Positions 1,369 through 10,100 of a stretch of DNA of 64,000 nucleotides are shown piece by piece. The stretch comes from Brevibacillus humidisoli (GTDB taxonomy: Bacteria > Bacillota > Bacilli > Brevibacillales > Brevibacillaceae), in the NCBI RefSeq assembly GCF_020923435.1, contig NZ_CP087263.1, positions 744,001-808,000 of the forward strand. Reading direction: 5' to 3'. Below the pieces are notes generated by a model. It saw only the letters and a program-made list of their open reading frames with translations, ran no database searches and had not been told where the DNA came from. Position 1 is the first letter of the stretch, and each line of letters starts with the position of its first letter. The translations under genes and the position numbers were made by a program.

Positions 1369-2358
1369 ATGCTGAAAAAGAGTTTGCTTGCAGTCTTGAT
1401 CAGTCTGTCGCTGATCAGCATCTCGAATACGGCAGGGGCAAAGTCCGCTGTGTTGTCTGAAGAAAAAGGAATCACCGATATTTCCGGCCATTGGGCCGAA
1501 TCGAAAATCCGCCAACTGCAGCAGGGCGGAGTGATTGAGGGAAACGACAATGGGCAATTCTATCCTGATAAGGTGATTACACGTTCAGAGTTGATTGCCA
1601 TGTTTGTCAAGGCAAGAGGTGTACAGCCGGATGCCGGCAAGCGCGTTCACTTTGCAGATGTACCAGACGATCACTGGTTTTATCCATACGCCAAGACGGC
1701 GTACCGACTAGGGATTCTCCATGGACACAGAGCAGAGGGAGGCCTCTATCTGCATCCTGATGAAACAGTGAGTAAAGAAGAAATGATCGCAATCTTGCTG
1801 CGTGCAAAAGGAGAAGGGGGACGCATCAATCAACTGCTGTGGTCCACAACCATGAAGACATTGCTCGCCTATCCCGATGGGGACGAGCTATCGGAATGGG
1901 GCAAACGGCCGATGGTATACGCACTGCAACATGAGATTACCCAACCTTCTTCAACAGGAATGCTGCAGCCCGCCAAGTTGATTACACGCGGTGCAGCGGC
2001 TGCCTATGCATATGATTTCTTATACAGACCTAGCTTCCAGAGCAGCAAATACGAGCAAACTGAACCGGTAGCGTTTCGCTATACACGCACGCTGGATGCG
2101 GAGACGACAGCCTATAACTATCCGGATGGCAATGTGAAGTCGTACATCGGGGCGCCGCTTCGTCCTGGAATTGTAGCTGTTGATCCCAATGTGATCGCTT
2201 TGGGCAGCCATCTCTACATTGAAGGATACGGCTACGCTGTAGCGGCAGACATCGGCGGAGCGGTGAAAGGAAACCGCATCGACTTGTACTACCCAACCTA
2301 CCAGCAGGCAGTTGACCACGGAATCCAACAAAATGTAAAGGTGTACGTATTGAACTAG
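1369..2358 (+). CDS. SLH-domain protein with C-terminal 3D domain
   Basis: 329 residues: a cleavable signal peptide (to about residue 24, ending AGA), then up to three S-layer-homology repeats (from ITDISGHWAESKI, VHFADVPDDHWFYPYAK and a weaker third), then a 3D domain at about 255-329. The 3D domain is named for its conserved aspartates, seen here in VAVDPNVIALG, AADIGGAV and RIDLYYP. SLH repeats bind secondary cell-wall polymer. 3D domains form an MltA-like barrel found in peptidoglycan lytic enzymes such as YuiC and YocH. It is probably a surface-anchored wall-remodelling enzyme. Start ATG 1369 follows GGGAGGAG. Confidence 0.88.
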   Translation: MLKKSLLAVLISLSLISISNTAGAKSAVLSEEKGITDISGHWAESKIRQLQQGGVIEGNDNGQFYPDKVITRSELIAMFVKARGVQPDAGKRVHFADVPDDHWFYPYAKTAYRLGILHGHRAEGGLYLHPDETVSKEEMIAILLRAKGEGGRINQLLWSTTMKTLLAYPDGDELSEWGKRPMVYALQHEITQPSSTGMLQPAKLITRGAAAAYAYDFLYRPSFQSSKYEQTEPVAFRYTRTLDAETTAYNYPDGNVKSYIGAPLRPGIVAVDPNVIALGSHLYIEGYGYAVAADIGGAVKGNRIDLYYPTYQQAVDHGIQQNVKVYVLN

Positions 2359-2436
2359 CTGACGATTCTATTTGTCAACAACTTAACATATTTCCCCGTT
2401 TTTTCCTCATACTAGAGAGGAAAGGCGGGGATTCTC

Positions 2437-3102
2437 TTGTTTGGCTGGTATATGCTGCTTGGCATTCTGCTTTTGCTCCTGATCATTGTCGTGACTCCAC
2501 TGAAGATTGTACTGGCATATCGACGTAAAAGTGCTAACGACTATTTGACGATCGAAGTGAGTGCTTGGTTTCACCTAATTCGCTATAAATATGAGATTCC
2601 TGTCTTGAAACTTTTGGCAGGCAAGACGGGTGCCGAGATGTCTGTCAATATGGAGCGGGAGAGCAGACGGAAACGGACAGAGAAGCGTAAGAAGATTTCC
2701 CCGGCGGACATAAAACAGAAGGTGCAGAAGTACAAGCAGTTTCAGCAGCGTGTTATCGATTTGCGTAAGACGATAAAGAAAATGATGCGCCACGTGCGCT
2801 GCGAAGAGATCGAATGGCATACGCGCCTTGGATTCGGGGAGGCGGCCTCAACGGACGCCTTGACGGGCTTGGTATGGGGCATTAAAAGCGCCATCGTAAC
2901 CTGCTTTTCCCACTACATCACGATGAGGACGGTACCACGGCTCAGCGTGCAGCCTGTCTGGAATGGGGAACAGATCCAAACGCAGTTTCGCTGTATACTT
3001 CGATTTCGGCTGGGACACGCTCTTGTCGCAGGGATCCGTATCTTACTAAAACTGAGAAGAAGACGTGAGCAAAAATGGCAGACCACCCCATCCAGGGTTT
3101 GA
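2437..3102 (+). CDS. ytfI: DUF2953 membrane-anchored protein (YtfI-like)
   Basis: 221 residues, starting at TTG 2437 after AAAGGCGGGG. One N-terminal membrane helix (about 5-25, very Leu/Ile-rich) is followed by a basic, Lys/Arg-rich soluble region. In Bacillus relatives this family sits directly upstream of ytfJ. The last 28 bases overlap the start of a ytfJ fragment, which appears to be the native overlap: the DUF2953 stop codon lies inside the direct repeat. The gene is therefore intact despite the insertion immediately downstream. Molecular function unknown; the link to spores is only by neighbourhood. Confidence 0.8.
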   Translation: MFGWYMLLGILLLLLIIVVTPLKIVLAYRRKSANDYLTIEVSAWFHLIRYKYEIPVLKLLAGKTGAEMSVNMERESRRKRTEKRKKISPADIKQKVQKYKQFQQRVIDLRKTIKKMMRHVRCEEIEWHTRLGFGEAASTDALTGLVWGIKSAIVTCFSHYITMRTVPRLSVQPVWNGEQIQTQFRCILRFRLGHALVAGIRILLKLRRRREQKWQTTPSRV

Positions 3103-3180
3103 TGAAGACGACGGTGGAAAACCTGAAACAAATGGTCGATGTAAACACCATTATCGGGGACCCGGTGGAGACCCCGGACG
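3075..3180 (+). repeat. Direct repeat, left copy (106 bp, 103 identical)
   Basis: Matches 6605-6710 in the same orientation. It begins exactly at the ytfJ start codon and ends at the CCCCGGACG of codons 33-35. Together the two copies bracket the R-M genes and the recombinase-like gene. Confidence 0.92.
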
Positions 3181-3203
3181 CGTGTGGAATCTGCAAACGA
3201 TAA
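3075..3203 (+). pseudogene. Truncated 5' copy of ytfJ (gerW) left of the R-M insertion
   Basis: The first 35 codons of ytfJ (MADHPIQGLMKTT... to ...GDPVETPD) are present, then the frame diverges and stops at 3201-3203, giving a 42-codon remnant. Bases 3075-3180 match 6605-6710, the start of the intact ytfJ, with only three mismatches (3114 G/A, 3124 G/A, 3155 C/T). One changes Val to Met; two are silent. The fragment probably has no function of its own and marks the left edge of the insertion. Confidence 0.85.
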
Positions 3204-3255
3204 CGCCAGAAAAGCGGCGCTAACCCCCTGGCATTGAAATACTAACGTTTATTTG

Positions 3256-3281
3256 GACATGTTCACATTGTGGTACATGTC
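3256..3281. promoter_or_regulatory. Inverted repeat with T-rich tail
   Basis: GACATGT (3256-3262) and ACATGTC (3275-3281) are a perfect 7-bp dyad followed by TTTTCGCTTTTC. It could terminate read-through from the ytfI side or act as an operator ahead of the methyltransferase gene. The sequence does not decide between these. Confidence 0.45.
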
Positions 3282-3300
3282 TTTTCGCTTTTCAATTACT

Positions 3301-3349
3301 TTGATTTTGGCTTATCTTTTGTTAAAATAAAAACAGGAACAAACGTTCG
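3301..3349 (+). promoter_or_regulatory. Promoter of the R-M genes with LexA (SOS)-like box
   Basis: TTGATT (3301-3306), 16 bases, TAAAAT (3323-3328) form a sigma-A-type promoter. GGAACAAACGTTCG (3336-3349) sits just after the -10 element, about where transcription should start. Its GAAC-N4-GTTC core is the Bacillus LexA/DinR operator core (CGAAC-N4-GTTCG), with only the outer left C missing. LexA binding there would block transcription. The match is seen; regulation by LexA is inference. Confidence 0.5.
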
Positions 3350-3425
3350 TTTTTAGCATCTTGAAGACAGGTCCAACATCATCTATACTTAATTCTTAAG
3401 CAAGACAGTTAGGAGAGTATCCCAT

Positions 3426-4388
3426 ATGAATTCACTTGAAATATGTGCAGGAGCGGGTGGACAAGCTCTTGGTCTTGAATTAGCAGGATTTGAACATGCC
3501 GCGCTTGTCGAAATTGAATCTCCAGCTTGCGCAACTCTACGCTTAAATCGACCTCACTGGAACGTTATAGAAGATGATTTGCGAAATGTATCTGGAAAAC
3601 ACTTCAAAGGTATTGATTTGCTTGCGGGCGGTGTTCCTTGTCCGCCGTTTTCAAAGGCTGGTAAACAGCTTGGACAAGAAGATGAACGCGACTTGTTCCC
3701 CGAAGCAATTCGCATGGTTGAGGAAATTCAACCTAAGGCAGTTATGCTTGAAAATGTTCGTGGGTTATTGGATGCAGTATTTGACGATTATCGAGAAAAG
3801 ATAGTAGATGATCTTCGTAAAATGGGATATACAGCGGAATGGAAACTTTTAAACGCTTCCGACTTTGGCGTTCCTCAACTTCGCCCGCGTGTTGTCTTTG
3901 TTGCAATAAGGAACGACCTCGCTCATAACTTTAGCTGGCCAAAGCCATTGTGGCATCGACCTCCTACAGTGGGAGAAACTCTTTATGACCTTATGGCTGA
4001 GAATGGTTGGTTTTTGGCCAATCGCTGGAAAGATTGGGCAAATGATATTGCTCCAACTATCGTTGGTGGTTCAAAGAAACACGGGGGGCCTGATTTGGGA
4101 CCAACACGTGCAAAACGAGCATGGGCAGCTCTGGGGGTTGATGGGATGGGCATTGCTGACCAAGCACCTGAGCCTAATTTCATTGGTTTGCCCCGATTGA
4201 CCACAAGAATGGTTGCACGGTTACAAGGTTTTCCTGATTCTTGGCAATTTTTCGGCAAGAAAACGCCAGCCTATCGTCAAATCGGCAATGCATTTCCACC
4301 ACCGGTTGCTCAAGCGGTTGGACTGGAAATTCGAAAGTGCTTAGAAGCTGGAATTACAATAAATCTGAAAAGGATACATAGACTATGA
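3426..4388 (+). CDS. DNA (cytosine-5) methyltransferase, NgoMIV-type R-M system
   Basis: 320-residue C5-cytosine methyltransferase with the canonical motifs in order: I (LEICAGAGGQALGLE, SAM binding), IV (GGVPCPPFSKAG, catalytic Cys72), VI (ENVRG, about 109-113), VIII (QLRPRVVFVAIR, about 150-160), IX (RLTTRMVARLQGFPD) and X (QIGNAFPPPVAQAVG). It should protect host DNA against the adjacent endonuclease, presumably at GCCGGC. Its stop overlaps the endonuclease ATG (ATGA), so the two are translationally coupled. Codon use is visibly more AT-rich than in the flanking host genes, consistent with transfer. The RBS is modest (TTAGGAGAG). Confidence 0.93.
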   Translation: MNSLEICAGAGGQALGLELAGFEHAALVEIESPACATLRLNRPHWNVIEDDLRNVSGKHFKGIDLLAGGVPCPPFSKAGKQLGQEDERDLFPEAIRMVEEIQPKAVMLENVRGLLDAVFDDYREKIVDDLRKMGYTAEWKLLNASDFGVPQLRPRVVFVAIRNDLAHNFSWPKPLWHRPPTVGETLYDLMAENGWFLANRWKDWANDIAPTIVGGSKKHGGPDLGPTRAKRAWAALGVDGMGIADQAPEPNFIGLPRLTTRMVARLQGFPDSWQFFGKKTPAYRQIGNAFPPPVAQAVGLEIRKCLEAGITINLKRIHRL

Positions 4389-5242
4389 CAAATGCGCTTA
4401 TTGCTAAAGCACGAAAGAAATATCATGCCTCGCTCTTGCAGTCAGTACTTACAGTCAATAGTCAAGGAGTTCCGAGCAACGCAGATAAAGACAGTAAATT
4501 ATCGGTTAGAATTGCTAAGGGAATTGCTGAAATACTGGAATCAGAAGCAGGAGAAAGATTAGCAGGTCAAACAAGCGGAAGTGAATTTGAGGCTATTAAT
4601 GCCGAGTTTATACGTGATACTTTTTTGGCACTAAATCATATACGTCCTGGTTATTGGGAGATTAAGAAGATTGGGAATCGCAAAAGAATGGCGATAGCTG
4701 GTTTTGAACAATACGCTCATTTAACCGCACTTGACGAGGCCTCCAAAAACAATCCAGAGCTTGCGGCTGCTCTTGGAAATGACTATACGATTACTCCTGA
4801 TATCATTATTGTTCAGAATCTTTTGCAGGATGATGAACTTAATAGGGATGATCTTATGGTTGATCTAGATGTCAGCCGCCGTGCAGCGATTCGGGCAATT
4901 AACGGAGGAAAGCCGCTGCTTCACGCTAGCATTTCTTCCAAGTGGACGATTCGTTCAGATCGAAGTCAAAACAGTCGTTCAGAAGCTTTGAACTTGATCC
5001 GAAATCGCAAAGGACATTTGCCTCACATTGTCGTTGTTACGGCAGAACCATTGCCAAGTCGTCTTGCCTCCATTGCACTTGGTACAGGTGATATAGATTG
5101 TGTTTACCATTTCGCTCTGGATGAACTTAAACAATCGGTGGAAATGGCAAATGCAGAAGATGCATTGGAGTTGCTCAATATTATGATTGACGGGAAGCGG
5201 TTAAAGGATATATCGGATCTGCCGTTGGATTTGGCTATATAA
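4385..5242 (+). CDS. NgoMIV-family type II restriction endonuclease
   Basis: 285 residues, almost the same length as NgoMIV (286), a tetrameric enzyme cutting GCCGGC. Visible active-site candidates at matching positions are Glu69, Asp139 (in TPDII), Lys186 (in SSKWTIRSDR) and Glu200 (in NSRSEALNL). Arg190, Asp192 and Arg193 match the residues NgoMIV uses to read the site. The downstream stretch PHIVVVTAEPLPSRLASIA and GTGDIDCVYHF is also characteristic. Gene order (M then R, 4-nt overlap, no controller protein gene) is compact. Specificity for GCCGGC is inferred from the family. The window itself contains such sites (for example 1633-1638 and 53774-53779), so the methyltransferase should be needed. 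Confidence 0.9.
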   Translation: MTNALIAKARKKYHASLLQSVLTVNSQGVPSNADKDSKLSVRIAKGIAEILESEAGERLAGQTSGSEFEAINAEFIRDTFLALNHIRPGYWEIKKIGNRKRMAIAGFEQYAHLTALDEASKNNPELAAALGNDYTITPDIIIVQNLLQDDELNRDDLMVDLDVSRRAAIRAINGGKPLLHASISSKWTIRSDRSQNSRSEALNLIRNRKGHLPHIVVVTAEPLPSRLASIALGTGDIDCVYHFALDELKQSVEMANAEDALELLNIMIDGKRLKDISDLPLDLAI

Positions 5243-5250
5243 GTACATTC

Positions 5251-5279
5251 AAGACTGTCAGCTGTTCGATGACAGTCTT
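5251..5279 (+). terminator. Hairpin after the R-M genes
   Basis: Perfect 10-bp stem AAGACTGTCA / TGACAGTCTT (5251-5260 and 5270-5279) just downstream of the endonuclease stop. The T-tract is poor (CGCTATTAT), so it may be a weak terminator or an mRNA-stabilising hairpin. It separates the R-M pair from the recombinase-like gene. Confidence 0.6.
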
Positions 5280-5416
5280 CGCTATTATAATAAATGCAAA
5301 TATTTTCTGACTTGTAATTGTAGTATTATAAAATTTGAAGAGGGAAATAATACAAAAATTTTACTTGCAAAATATGCATAAAATTTTAATTTTATTTAAT
5401 ATGGAGGTTATAAACT

Positions 5417-6343
5417 ATGGAACAGATTTCAATCCAACTGTTGAAGGACTTCATTAACAAAGATTTCGCAATGTTTTTAAAAACAAAAGATAGGAGCTTA
5501 GTTCCAAGGGTTCGAGAACAATACCTACGAGACATTAATAATTATGTTGAAAATTATTTAGAAGACAGTGCCCTTGTTGATTTTAAAAGTTTTTTTGCAA
5601 AGCATTTAATAAAAAGATTTCTAGAAAATCGAACGGGCTCTACAGCAAGAGCAGCACTAACGAATTTTCTTGAGTTACTATGTTCAGCAGATTTAAGAAA
5701 AATTGATTTAGAGTCATATTTTCGTATTAAAGAAACAATCCAAAGTGTTAAAAAGACACCAAAGGAAAAGCTTGATTTTTTAACAGAAGAAGACATTGAC
5801 TATATTATGCACGAAACCGATTTTAGTAAAAAACAAACTCAAGAGAAGATTTTGACGCCATTGATAGTCACACTGGCTTACCATATGCTTTTCGAACAAG
5901 ATCACATTTATAAATTGAAAAGGAATGACGTAAAGATTGAAGAAAGAAAAATACGCAATCTTAGACATGACTTCGATGAATCAGTGGATAAATGGTTGGA
6001 AATGGATTTATATTCATATAATGTTATCAAAAAATATTGCGACCAATATGATGGTGAACTGAATGCTCCATTTGTCATTATTAAAGGAGCACCAGCTAAC
6101 AACCAAACAGTAAATAAAATGCTACATGGAGTGTATAGAAGTACGAAAAATCGTTCAAAATTAACCACTACTGTAGACGTACAAAAACTGATTAGATCAC
6201 GAATTCTCATCGATTTAAGAAACACGCAGGGTCAAAGTCTCATGAAGTTTTATGAAATAATGGGTATGAAAAGAAACACTCAACTTGAAAATGCATTACA
6301 CCAATATTTACAGGAACAACAAGACATTAAGCAAAATAATTGA
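5417..6343 (+). CDS. Degenerate tyrosine-recombinase-like protein inside the insertion
   Basis: 308-residue, Lys/Asn/Ile-rich protein, the most AT-rich gene of the window, behind ATGGAGGTTATAAACT. Its plan matches phage-type integrases: a helical SAM-like N domain (about 1-110), then LTEEDIDYIM and LTPLIVTLAYHMLF...IYKLKRNDVKIEE where the catalytic domain normally starts, and a C-terminal IRSRILIDL...EIMGMKRNTQLENALHQYL like the LRH...LGH...Y end. The box I Arg is not recognisable, the HxLRH block is reduced to QKLIR, and LGH reads MGM. It is probably not an active recombinase by the usual chemistry. Tyr at about 297 could be a nucleophile remnant. Role unknown: relic integrase, DNA-binding accessory factor or regulator. 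Confidence 0.55.
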   Translation: MEQISIQLLKDFINKDFAMFLKTKDRSLVPRVREQYLRDINNYVENYLEDSALVDFKSFFAKHLIKRFLENRTGSTARAALTNFLELLCSADLRKIDLESYFRIKETIQSVKKTPKEKLDFLTEEDIDYIMHETDFSKKQTQEKILTPLIVTLAYHMLFEQDHIYKLKRNDVKIEERKIRNLRHDFDESVDKWLEMDLYSYNVIKKYCDQYDGELNAPFVIIKGAPANNQTVNKMLHGVYRSTKNRSKLTTTVDVQKLIRSRILIDLRNTQGQSLMKFYEIMGMKRNTQLENALHQYLQEQQDIKQNN

Positions 6344-6604
6344 TTGATTAAGGCGGAAAGGACCTTTTTTTATTGTGATCATTGATGGCCGATGTTAAAA
6401 CGAATGCAGGAGAAATTGTAGGGACAACTGAATCTAAGTGATATCATGTGAAGTCTCCAAACGAGCCACTCAATATCTGCTAATTATTCCTTTATTTAGG
6501 TAAATTGATTGTAACCAACGTGGCTCACTCATTTTCAACAGTACATGCTTAGACCCAAGTTGGGGCATGCTACGAATGCCGAATAAACTAAGGAGGAATT
6601 AATG

Positions 6605-6710
6605 ATGGCAGACCACCCCATCCAGGGTTTGATGAAGACGACGATGGAAAACCTAAAACAAATGGTCGATGTAAACACCATTATTGGGGACCCGGTGGAG
6701 ACCCCGGACG
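6605..6710 (+). repeat. Direct repeat, right copy (start of intact ytfJ)
   Basis: Same orientation as 3075-3180, 103 of 106 bases identical. Homology begins at the ytfJ ATG. The bases upstream (AAGGAGGAATTA) are unrelated to the left copy, where coding sequence of DUF2953 precedes the ATG. Confidence 0.92.
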
Positions 6711-7063
6711 GCAGTGTCATCTTGCCTGTATCCAAAGTGGGTTTTGGCTTCGCTGCAGGCGGAAGCGAGTTTGAATACTCCCAGGATTACCATATGCATT
6801 CGGCTGGAAACCACCCCTTTGGTGGCGGGAGTGGTGGCGGTGTATCCATTACCCCGGTCGCTTTCCTGGTCGTCGGCAAGCAGGGCATTCGGTCCATTCC
6901 GCTGGAAAACGCAACCCATTTGTATGATCGCATCCTAGATTCGATTCCGCAATTTGTGGACAAGATCCAGGGCATGTTTTCCAACGATCAGCAACAGTCA
7001 AACTCAACAACGCGCATTGTGACACACGCTGATGACGAAGATTATGTGATTGAAAGAGGATAA
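6605..7063 (+). CDS. ytfJ: GerW family sporulation/germination protein YtfJ
   Basis: 152 residues with the family hallmarks: N-terminal ADHPIQGLMKTTMENLKQMVDVN, GDPVETPDGSVILPVSKVGFGFAAGGSE, a Gly-rich loop (HPFGGGSGGGVSITPVAFLV) and a C-terminal amphipathic helix. In B. subtilis YtfJ/GerW is made in the forespore and is needed for efficient L-alanine-triggered germination. Start 6605 is preferred because it matches the truncated copy; an ATG one codon earlier (6602) sits closer to the AGGAGG at 6591-6596. The insertion has replaced the native upstream sequence (ytfI end), so expression must now depend on sequence supplied by the insert. Confidence 0.9.
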   Translation: MADHPIQGLMKTTMENLKQMVDVNTIIGDPVETPDGSVILPVSKVGFGFAAGGSEFEYSQDYHMHSAGNHPFGGGSGGGVSITPVAFLVVGKQGIRSIPLENATHLYDRILDSIPQFVDKIQGMFSNDQQQSNSTTRIVTHADDEDYVIERG

Positions 7064-7096
7064 CGGCATTCCGCCGAGCGGAATGCCGTTTTTTCT
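7062..7096 (+). terminator. Terminator after ytfJ, shared with convergent pyc
   Basis: 13-bp perfect stem AACGGCATTCCGC / GCGGAATGCCGTT with CGA loop, overlapping the ytfJ stop and followed by TTTTTC. It also lies 3' of pyc on the opposite strand and may serve both genes. Confidence 0.88.
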
Positions 7097-7103
7097 AGGC
7101 GAG

Positions 7104-10100
7104 CTACTCCAGCTCAAGGAGGAGGTCACCGGCTTCAATGGTATCGCCTGCTTTTACGTGAACTGCCTTTACCGTAGCATCGACTGGAGCCTGAAGCGTG
7201 GTTTCCATCTTCATCGCTTCGCTGACGAGAAGATGCTCCCCTTTTCGTACCTTGTCACCCGCTTCGACCAGCACCTTCAATACTTTCCCTGGCATCGAGG
7301 CACCGACGTGGCTGGGGTTTTTCGAGTCCGCTCTGGCCCGCTGTTGTTCCGTGACTTGAGCAGCATGATCCCGCACCTTGATCTCTCGTGGCTGACCGTT
7401 TAACTCAAAGTAGACGATCCGGCGTCCGTCCGGCTGCAGATCACCGACGGCGACCAGCTTGATAATCAGTGTTTTCCCTCGTTCGATGCTGACAGACGTC
7501 TCCTCACCCGGCCGCAGCCCGTAGAAGAAGGTAGAGGTATCAAGGAACGAGAGATCTCCGTACTCCTTCAAACTTTGATCGTACTGGAGGAAGACCGGCG
7601 GGTACATGATGTAGGACAGGACATCCAACTCACTCGGTTCACGTCCGATCTTTTCTTCCAGTTCTTGTTTTAGTTTGGCGAAGTCGACAGGGGCGAGCAG
7701 TTCGCCGGGCCGCGCCGTAAACGATTCACGACTTTTCAGCACCAATTCCTGCAGTCGTTTCGGGAAACCCCCCGGAGGCTGTCCGAGATACCCCTGGAAG
7801 AACTGCACTACGGAATCGGGGAAATCGAGTCGTGCTCCCTTTTCATACAGGTTTTCTTCCGTGAGGTTGTTTTGCACCATGAACAGAGCCATGTCACCGA
7901 CCACTTTGGAGGAGGGTGTCACTTTAACGATGTCGCCAAACAATCGATTCACTGCCGCATACATCGCCTTGATCTCGTCCCAGCGTCCTCCCAAACCGAC
8001 AGCTTTGGCCTGCTGTTCCAGATTGGAGTACTGACCACCCGGCATCTCATGAACGTAAACCTCTGCGTTGCTTGCCTTCATACCGCTTTCAAAACCTTGA
8101 TACAGCGGTCGAATATCCTCCCAGTAATCGGACAAGCGGTTATATGCCTCAAGCGAGAGGCCAGTATCGCGCTCAGTCCGCTCCAGCGAGGCGATCAAGG
8201 CATTGATGCTCGGCTGTGAGGTGAGTCCGGAGAGTGAGCTGACGCAGGCATCCACAATATCGACTCCTGCTTCAATGGCCTTGAGCAGCATCGCACCGCC
8301 GTTTCCGGAGGTATCGTGGGTGTGCAGGTGAATCGGGAGGGCTACCTCCTGTTTGAGGGCCCGAATCAGCTCATAAGCCGCATACGGTTTCAGCAATCCG
8401 GCCATATCTTTGATCGCCAGAATATGGGCACCCGCCCGTTCCAACTCTTTGGCCAGATCGACGTAGTACTTCAGGTTGTACTTGGTTTTGGTCGGATCGA
8501 GTATATCGCCGGTATAACAGATCGCCGCTTCCGCCACTTTCCCTGATTCACGTACCGCGTCAATCGCCACCTGCATATTGGGCAGCCAGTTCAAGCTGTC
8601 AAATATCCGAAACACATCGATGCCTCGTGCGGCCGATTCCTTGACAAAGGCCTGGATCACGTTGTCCGGGTAGTTGGTGTAGCCGACCGCATTTGCGCCG
8701 CGCAGCAACATCTGAAACAACACGTTGGGGATCTTTTCCCGCAGCAGCTGGAGCCTGTCCCAAGGCGATTCCTTTAGAAAACGCATCGCCGTGTCAAACG
8801 TGGCACCGCCCCACATCTCCAGCGAAAAGACGTCGTGCGCCAGTTTGCCGGTGGCTTCGGCGATTGCTACCAGGTCGTAGGTTCGCACGCGTGTAGCGAA
8901 CAGCGACTGGTGGGCATCGCGAAAGGTGGTGTCGGTCAGCAGCACCTTTTGCTGGGACTGAATCCATTTGACCAGCCCGTCTGCCCCTTCCCGATCGAGG
9001 ATCTGCTTGGTTCCGTCCGGATACGGCTGAGAGAACGGTGTTTTGGGAATCCGCGGATAGCCGACGCGCGGTTTTTTCTCCCCCTTGGGCAGGTCCGGAT
9101 AGCCATTGACGATCGTGTTGCCGATGTAGTTGAGCAGCTTGGTGCCGCGGTCCTGTGTGCCAGGGAACACGAACAGCTCCGGTTTGCTGTCGATAAAGGA
9201 CGTGTTGTATTGACCGCTGAGGAAGTCCGGGTGTGTGACCACGTTTTCCAGGAAAGGAAGATTGGTCTTCACCCCGCGGATACGGAACTCCCGCAGTGTC
9301 CGCAGCATTTTCCGGGCAGCCTGCTCAAACGTATCGGCGTACGTGGAGATTTTGACCAACAGCGAGTCGTAATGTGGTGTGATGATCGCGCCAGGATAGC
9401 CGTTCCCTCCGTCCAGCCTGACGCCGAATCCACCTCCCGAGCGCCAAGCCAGCAGACGTCCTGCATCTGGGATAAATCCGTTTTCCGGATCTTCCGTGGT
9501 GACCCGGCACTGGATGGCATACCCGTTCATCTCAATCTCTTCCTGCGAGCGGATGCCGATCTCTGGATCAGAGAGTGTATATCCTTCCGCAATCCGGATT
9601 TGCGCCTGGACGATATCAATCCCGGTAATCAGTTCGGTAATCGTATGCTCTACTTGAATCCGCGGATTGACTTCGATGAAGTAAAATTTGTTGTCCGGGG
9701 TAAGCAGGAACTCGACTGTACCAGCGTTGGTGTATCCCGCTTCTTTCATCAGTTTCAGCGCTGCCTGGCAGATCTCTTCCCGCAGTTCGTCTGACAGAGA
9801 CAGACTTGGGGCCACTTCCACCACTTTCTGATGGCGCCGCTGGATGGAGCAGTCCCGCTCGTAGAGGTGGACGATGTTGCCGTGCTGATCCCCCAGGATT
9901 TGCACCTCAATATGTTTTGGCTCCTCCAGATAACGTTCCACGTAGACGGCTGCGTTGCCAAAGGAGGAGCGAGCCTCCGAACGGGCCCGGTCCAATGCCT
10001 CCTGCAGCTCGTCCTGATTGCGGACGATGCGCATACCGCGGCCACCGCCGCCTGAAACACCCTTGATAATCACCGGATAGCCGTGCTCTTTGGTGAACAG

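What the first reader, a model, noticed from the sequence alone, without database searches (positions are those of the whole stretch)
3075..6710. R-M genes inserted into ytfJ with a 106-bp target duplication
Seen: about 3.4 kb of foreign-looking DNA splits the ytfI-ytfJ locus. The first 106 bp of ytfJ occur twice in direct orientation, 103 of 106 identical; the left copy runs into a stop after 42 codons and the right copy is the intact gene. The DUF2953 stop codon lies within the repeat, so both host genes survive. Known: Kobayashi and colleagues described R-M genes that enter chromosomes with long target duplications. This fits that pattern and looks recent. Inference: the unit jumped in as one piece, and the locus could revert precisely by recombination between the repeats.
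Basis: partly seen in the sequence, partly recalled or inferred. Interest (0 to 1): 0.78.

Follow-up and report, generated by a model that had tools for sequence, protein, structure and literature searches.

The report
Leftover prophage-type end with restriction genes
Restriction-modification genes beside a doubled start of the spore gene ytfJ look like the leftover left end of a phage-type element that integrates inside that gene, joined to an intact copy of the gene, rather than genes that jumped in and duplicated their target.

Summary
The repeat is real: 3075-3180 and 6605-6710 match at 103 of 106 bases; the insert is unique in its genome. It holds an NgoMIV-type methyltransferase and nuclease plus an orphan ORF. 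Target duplication fails at both borders. (1) The left copy breaks at ytfJ codon 36, where large-serine-recombinase elements split ytfJ in three other genomes (G032, about 115 kb; G513, about 35 kb; G697, two contigs); a viral contig with a related integrase also runs into ytfJ near there. DNA after the break resembles the G032 element's arm (anchored score 19; best of 20,000 controls 6). So the left border is an attL-type end. (2) The right copy carries a native ytfJ upstream block (6541-6598) found in relatives with separated ytfI and ytfJ, while the left copy overlaps ytfI by 28 nt as in 8 of 38 relatives. The locus is a composite: an element's left end, without integrase or attR, joined to an intact ytfJ, probably by recombination between an element-carrying and an element-free chromosome. 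Route and order are unresolved. By-product: ytfJ codon 36 is a recurrent integration site, which my literature searches did not find described.

The parts
2437..3102 (+). ytfI (DUF2953), intact; its stop lies 28 nt inside the left ytfJ copy
   Evidence: PF11167
3075..3180 (+). left partial copy of ytfJ (codons 1-35 plus one base); host side of the attL-type junction
   Evidence: 103 of 106 identical to 6605-6710; 42-codon reading frame then stop
3180..3230 (+). presumed crossover (codon 36) and element-side arm of the junction
   Evidence: anchored alignment with the G032 junction arm, 0 of 20,000 controls as good; with G513, 11 of 20,000
3426..4388 (+). C5-cytosine DNA methyltransferase
   Evidence: PF00145 E 1e-75
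4385..5242 (+). NgoMIV-family restriction endonuclease
   Evidence: PF09015 E 1.3e-124; PDB 1fiu E 1e-112
5417..6343 (+). ORF3, 308 aa, function unknown
   Evidence: one relative at 30% identity, fused to an HNH domain; that relative's N-terminal part has a weak PF00589 match, E 0.002, below cut-off
6344..6540 (.). stretch in which the join between element DNA and the native ytfJ upstream region must lie; exact point unknown
   Evidence: no similarity found to the fetched element pieces
6541..6598 (+). native ytfJ upstream block with ribosome-binding site
   Evidence: aligned with G012; window 6505-6604 beats all 1,000 controls against 7 of 38 genomes
6605..7063 (+). intact ytfJ/gerW; 6605-6710 is the right repeat copy (ORF listing starts it at 6602)

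Best explanation
A mobile element with a large serine recombinase had integrated at codon 36 of ytfJ in a chromosome whose ytfI and ytfJ overlap. That gives the junction seen at 3180/3181: ytfJ codons 1-35, then the element's arm and its left-side cargo, here an NgoMIV-type R-M pair and ORF3. Recombination then joined this left end to an intact ytfJ with its own upstream block, of the kind seen where the two genes are separated; the join lies between 6344 and 6540. The rest of the element, with integrase and attR, is absent. The likeliest route is one homologous and one illegitimate crossover during DNA uptake: either element DNA entering an element-free cell, or intact ytfJ DNA entering an element carrier and repairing the gene. 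Shown: the left break at the site used by such elements, the similar arm, the native block before the right copy, and no close integrase in the genome. Inferred: that recombination between two chromosomes made the join, its route and order, and what the whole element was.
For: Same break point: ytfJ is split at codon 36 in G032, G513 and G697, each with a 497-503 aa serine recombinase beside the right half; a viral contig's integrase (53% identical to G032's) runs into ytfJ residue 33 on. Joining the halves of G032 and of G513 at GG restores the ytfJ frame. Arm: anchored score 19 against G032 (control maximum 6 of 20,000); 4 against G513 (11 of 20,000 as good); G032 against G513 8 (3 of 20,000). 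Right side: window 6505-6604 matches the upstream region of ytfJ in 7 of 38 genomes better than all 1,000 controls. Left copy: overlap of 28 nt with ytfI, as in 8 of 38 genomes; the six best matches to the 100 nt before it are all such genomes. Own genome: best serine recombinase only 28% identical to G032's.
Against: The second base of the presumed GG crossover is C in the window's left junction (3181), so it is not a perfect attL. G513's arm alone is a modest match. The arm was found only by an anchored alignment; blastn (E up to 0.1) of the whole insert against 11 element or relative pieces found nothing, and the R-M genes were not found in those pieces, so the cargo does not link them. The neighbour G001, with separated genes, does not share the upstream block significantly (score 16, 276 of 1,000 controls as good), and the overlapping-gene genome G029 scores 23 (8 of 1,000). 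Flank identities to G001 and G002 do not reveal a donor. No strain of the same species was available, and no attR or remnant integrase is present.
Confidence: 0.7

Rival explanations
1. Insertion with long target duplication: an R-M unit entered an overlapping ytfI-ytfJ locus as one piece and duplicated the first 106 bp of ytfJ.
For: Formally the order is host, repeat, insert, repeat, host, and G002 looks like the empty site. Such insertions of R-M genes are reported (PMC3031569 passages).
Against: The insert's left end resembles the arm of elements that use this very site and its right end is a ytfJ upstream block; neither is expected of an independent R-M unit.
Confidence: 0.12
2. A circle made by faulty excision in another strain, carrying the ytfJ upstream block, ytfJ 5' end, arm, R-M genes and ORF3, integrated by one homologous crossover in the 106 bp of an overlapping ytfI-ytfJ locus.
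For: It gives exactly the observed order in one step and explains why the insert ends in a ytfJ upstream block.
Against: It needs an earlier faulty excision, and crossover in only 106 bp; no such circle was seen (no second copy in the genome; no ORF3 in plasmids or phages).
Confidence: 0.12
3. The element carries a spare ytfJ promoter and 5' end, so that integration restores the gene by design.
For: In the window ytfJ is intact behind the element DNA.
Against: In 4 of 4 right junctions seen (G032, G513, G697, viral contig) the element runs straight into the ytfJ remainder without a spare 5' end.
Confidence: 0.03

Closest known systems
Elements that interrupt sporulation genes: skin in sigK, SPbeta in spsM, vfbin in spoVFB, gin in gerE, yin in yabG (PMC10747680 introduction; PMC5595907 passages)
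   Same: Serine-recombinase element inside a sporulation gene; in G032 and G513 the joined halves restore the frame.
   Different: The gene is ytfJ/gerW; in the window only the left end remains and an intact gene stands beside it. Excision was not tested.
SPbeta-like phages (PMC8270828 passages)
   Same: G032's element is of similar size (about 115 kb) and its integrase is closest, among phage records, to those of staphylococcal SPbeta-like phages, 31.8% identity.
   Different: Reported SPbeta-group sites in that review are spsM, kamA or intergenic; whether the window's element was SPbeta-like is unknown.
R-M insertion with long target duplication (Nobusato et al. 2000, seen only as a reference; PMC3031569 passages)
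   Same: R-M genes between direct repeats of host sequence.
   Different: One border resembles an attachment site and the other is native ytfJ upstream DNA.
NgoMIV R-M system (PDB 1fiu)
   Same: Nuclease homologous over residues 5-285; methyltransferase gene directly upstream, as on plasmid pAES2.
   Different: Host and context; activity untested.

Membership tests
ytfJ-targeting large-serine-recombinase element | left junction at ytfJ codon 36 | tested here: met
ytfJ-targeting large-serine-recombinase element | element-side arm similar to known ones | tested here: met
   (strong with G032, modest with G513)
ytfJ-targeting large-serine-recombinase element | integrase gene | tested here: not met
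   none in the insert; own genome's best is 28% identical. So it is at most a remnant.
ytfJ-targeting large-serine-recombinase element | attR junction with the ytfJ remainder | tested here: not met
   right copy is a complete gene with its own upstream block
R-M insertion with long target duplication | R-M genes between long direct repeats | tested here: met
R-M insertion with long target duplication | everything between the repeats is foreign | tested here: not met
   6541-6598 resembles native ytfJ upstream DNA
R-M insertion with long target duplication | matching empty site in a close strain | tested here: inconclusive
   no same-species genome held; the genus has 3 genomes
NgoMIV-type II R-M system | NgoMIV-family nuclease with adjacent C5 methyltransferase | tested here: met
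NgoMIV-type II R-M system | cleavage and methylation of its site | not testable with these tools
   needs expression or a methylome
Sporulation-gene intervening element | interrupts the gene and is excised during sporulation | tested here: not met
   in the window ytfJ is intact; interruption is met in G032, G513, G697, excision not testable
MrpR (SPbeta repressor), considered for ORF3 | sequence similarity to SPBc2 YopR | tested here: not met
   hhalign probability 0.2 percent; profile of only 2 sequences

The most novel reading that the evidence does not exclude
ytfJ (gerW) codon 36 is a standing integration site for a family of serine-recombinase elements in spore formers. They excise during sporulation to rebuild a forespore-expressed gene, so that, unlike with mother-cell elements, the excision would be inherited by the spore. 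Lineages such as this one escape by recombining in an intact gene and keep the element's R-M genes.
Probability: 0.25. Interest if true: 0.7.

Novelty: new member of a known kind. Interest (0 to 1): 0.45.

Why it matters
It replaces a special mechanism (R-M genes inserting themselves) with an ordinary one (the end of a phage-type element plus an intact gene), and suggests a check for other claimed R-M target duplications: look for an attachment arm at one border and native regulatory DNA at the other. It also points to ytfJ as a recurrent integration site. GerW expression is reported as forespore-specific (PMC4366231 passages), so regulated excision there, if it occurs, would pass into the spore, which can be tested.

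Tried and rejected
ORF3 as an active integrase: no convincing match in Pfam, NCBIfam, PHROGs or PADLOC; its relative's PF00589 match is below the cut-off; the structure model was useless (mean pLDDT 40.1), so no fold search was made. ORF3 relatives: none in plasmids or phages, none in the first genome-contig scan or the viral scan, one Thermincola MAG contig in the second genome-contig scan, which by its match coordinates is probably the G249 contig; 2 of 398 phylum genomes, own included.

Attachment-arm pattern in viral contigs: 4 matches, none recognisably beside ytfJ by eye. A first local-alignment test of the arms was spoilt because its control pools held the arms themselves; against shuffles it gave 0 of 5,000 for G032 and 134 of 5,000 for G513; replaced by the anchored test with clean pools. 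A ytfJ query in viral contigs found only the contig already known. Recombinases similar to the ytfJ-specific ones: 18 loci in 15 of 398 class genomes at E 1e-90, only 3 first-look candidates per genome being scored in the rows shown; 3 of the 18 loci (G032, G513, G697) hold a ytfJ match within the 1.5-kb flanks. Split-gene survey: 244 of 398 class genomes match ytfJ; I re-examined 19 (18 other than the own genome that I saw listed with more than one match, plus G580, whose match ends at a contig end); long splits in 3 of 19, the others short gaps, distant paralogues or the contig end. Genomes with one partial match were not checked, so 3 is a lower bound. Donor assignment from flank identities was uninformative. 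No Rfam family in 2000-8000. GCCGGC (NgoMIV site, recalled) is not depleted in the window: 30 copies against 7-24 for five other G+C hexamers.
Full report
What is there. The window lies at 744,001-808,000 of a single-contig genome of 4.9 Mb. Between ytfI (DUF2953, 2437-3102) and an intact ytfJ/gerW (6605-7063) lie a cytosine methyltransferase (3426-4388), an NgoMIV-family nuclease (4385-5242; PDB 1fiu over residues 5-285, E 1e-112) and an unknown ORF3 of 308 residues (5417-6343). The first 106 bases of ytfJ also stand at 3075-3180, 103 of 106 identical. The segments between have 25-46% G+C against 52% for the window, and the insert is unique in the genome.

The left border. Of 39 family genomes, own included, G032 has ytfJ in two pieces, residues 2-41 and 34-147, about 115 kb apart on one strand. 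A 503-residue protein with resolvase and recombinase domains stands beside the second piece. In a class sample 244 of 398 genomes match ytfJ. Of 19 genomes re-examined, G513 (about 35 kb) and G697 (pieces on two contigs), besides G032, are split at the same place; their integrases are 60% identical to G032's. A 204-kb viral contig has an integrase 53% identical to G032's that runs into ytfJ; its left end was not found, so its exact crossover is open. Joining the halves of G032 and of G513 at a GG restores the ytfJ frame at glycine codon 36. The window's left copy stops matching inside that codon.

The arm. In an alignment anchored at the junction, 52 nt of the window scored 19 against G032, where 20,000 control stretches had a mean of -11.9 and a maximum of 6. 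Against G513 the score was 4 (11 of 20,000 controls as good); G032 against G513 gave 8 (3 of 20,000). Position and arm together make the left border an attL-type end. Against this: the second base of the presumed GG is C in the window (3181), blastn of the whole insert against 11 fetched pieces found nothing at E up to 0.1, and the R-M genes were not found in those pieces. No integrase of this type is in the genome: the best serine recombinase is 28% identical to G032's.

The right border. From the table I assigned 32 of 38 other family genomes: 8 have ytfI overlapping ytfJ by exactly 28 nt (G002, G029-G033, G036, G038), 24 have the genes separated by 76-171 nt, and 6 were not assigned (G010, G017, G024, G034, G035, G037). 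The window's left copy has the same 28-nt overlap. The window's 6505-6604 matches the region upstream of ytfJ in 7 of 38 genomes better than each of 1,000 control stretches (G012, G011, G010, G028, G005, G003, G034); of these, 5 are among the 24 separated genomes and 2 were not assigned by the script. G012's alignment covers 6541-6598 and includes the ribosome-binding site. The congeners G001 and G002 do not match significantly, and the overlapping-gene genome G029 gives 8 of 1,000. As a control, the six best matches to the 100 nt before the left copy are G002, G030, G038, G029, G036 and G032, all overlapping-gene genomes. So the left copy belongs to the overlapping arrangement and the right copy to the separated one. 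A sigma-F promoter and forespore-specific expression are reported for gerW in B. subtilis and B. megaterium (PMC4366231, passages); promoter function was not tested here.

Reading. A target duplication would need a foreign unit that starts with the arm of an element using this very site and ends in a ytfJ upstream block. A join between the left end of such an element and an intact ytfJ locus accounts for both borders, the missing integrase and attR, the intact gene, and the 3% difference between the copies. Two mirror routes fit: element DNA taken up by an element-free cell, or intact ytfJ DNA repairing an element carrier. A circle from a faulty excision, integrated through the 106 bp, fits the order as well. 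Homologous recombination at one end with illegitimate joining at the other has been reported in naturally competent bacteria and in conjugation (PMC3240628, start of abstract in a listing); merodiploids made by transformation are described in S. pneumoniae (PMC3784515, abstract). Flank identities to G001 and G002 did not separate the routes: ytfI 70% and 71%, ytfJ remainder 78% and 74%, pyc 3' end 82% and 80%.

R-M genes and ORF3. NgoMIV-type nucleases match in 9 of 398 phylum genomes, own included, 3 of them only in part, in 17 plasmid records and 1 phage record, so the pair is found on mobile DNA. ORF3 has one relative, fused to an HNH domain; a weak tyrosine-recombinase signal in that relative and no match to MrpR leave its role open.

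Novelty. Elements inside sporulation genes are known for sigK, spsM, spoVFB, gerE and yabG (PMC10747680, introduction). Neither ytfJ nor gerW occurs in the main text of three papers on such elements or phages (PMC5595907, PMC8270828, PMC10747680). Searches combining ytfJ or gerW with phage or recombinase terms gave no report of it as an integration site (judged by titles and abstract starts; one search listed 15 of 48 papers; the library holds open-licence papers only). The window itself is a decayed example next to an intact gene; the recurrent site is the more useful finding.

Noticed in passing
L045, L046 (G032); L120, L121 (G513); L122, L123 (G697); L083: Large-serine-recombinase elements of very different size (about 115 kb in G032, about 35 kb in G513) sit in ytfJ codon 36; a viral contig runs into ytfJ near there.
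   Followed up: partly
family genomes: The ytfI-ytfJ junction exists in two states, overlapping by 28 nt (8 of 38) or separated with an upstream block (24 of 38), and both states occur within the window's genus.
   Followed up: partly
L035 123-1559 (G249): The only relative of ORF3 has the same N-terminal part fused to a C-terminal HNH nuclease domain.
   Followed up: partly
L045 940-1695 and L120 1865-2563: The gene next to the left junction looks alike by eye in G032 and G513 (zinc-ribbon-like; CapR homology domain in G032's), although the elements differ about threefold in size.
   Followed up: no
window, whole: GCCGGC, the site recalled for NgoMIV, is not depleted: 30 copies in 64 kb.
   Followed up: no
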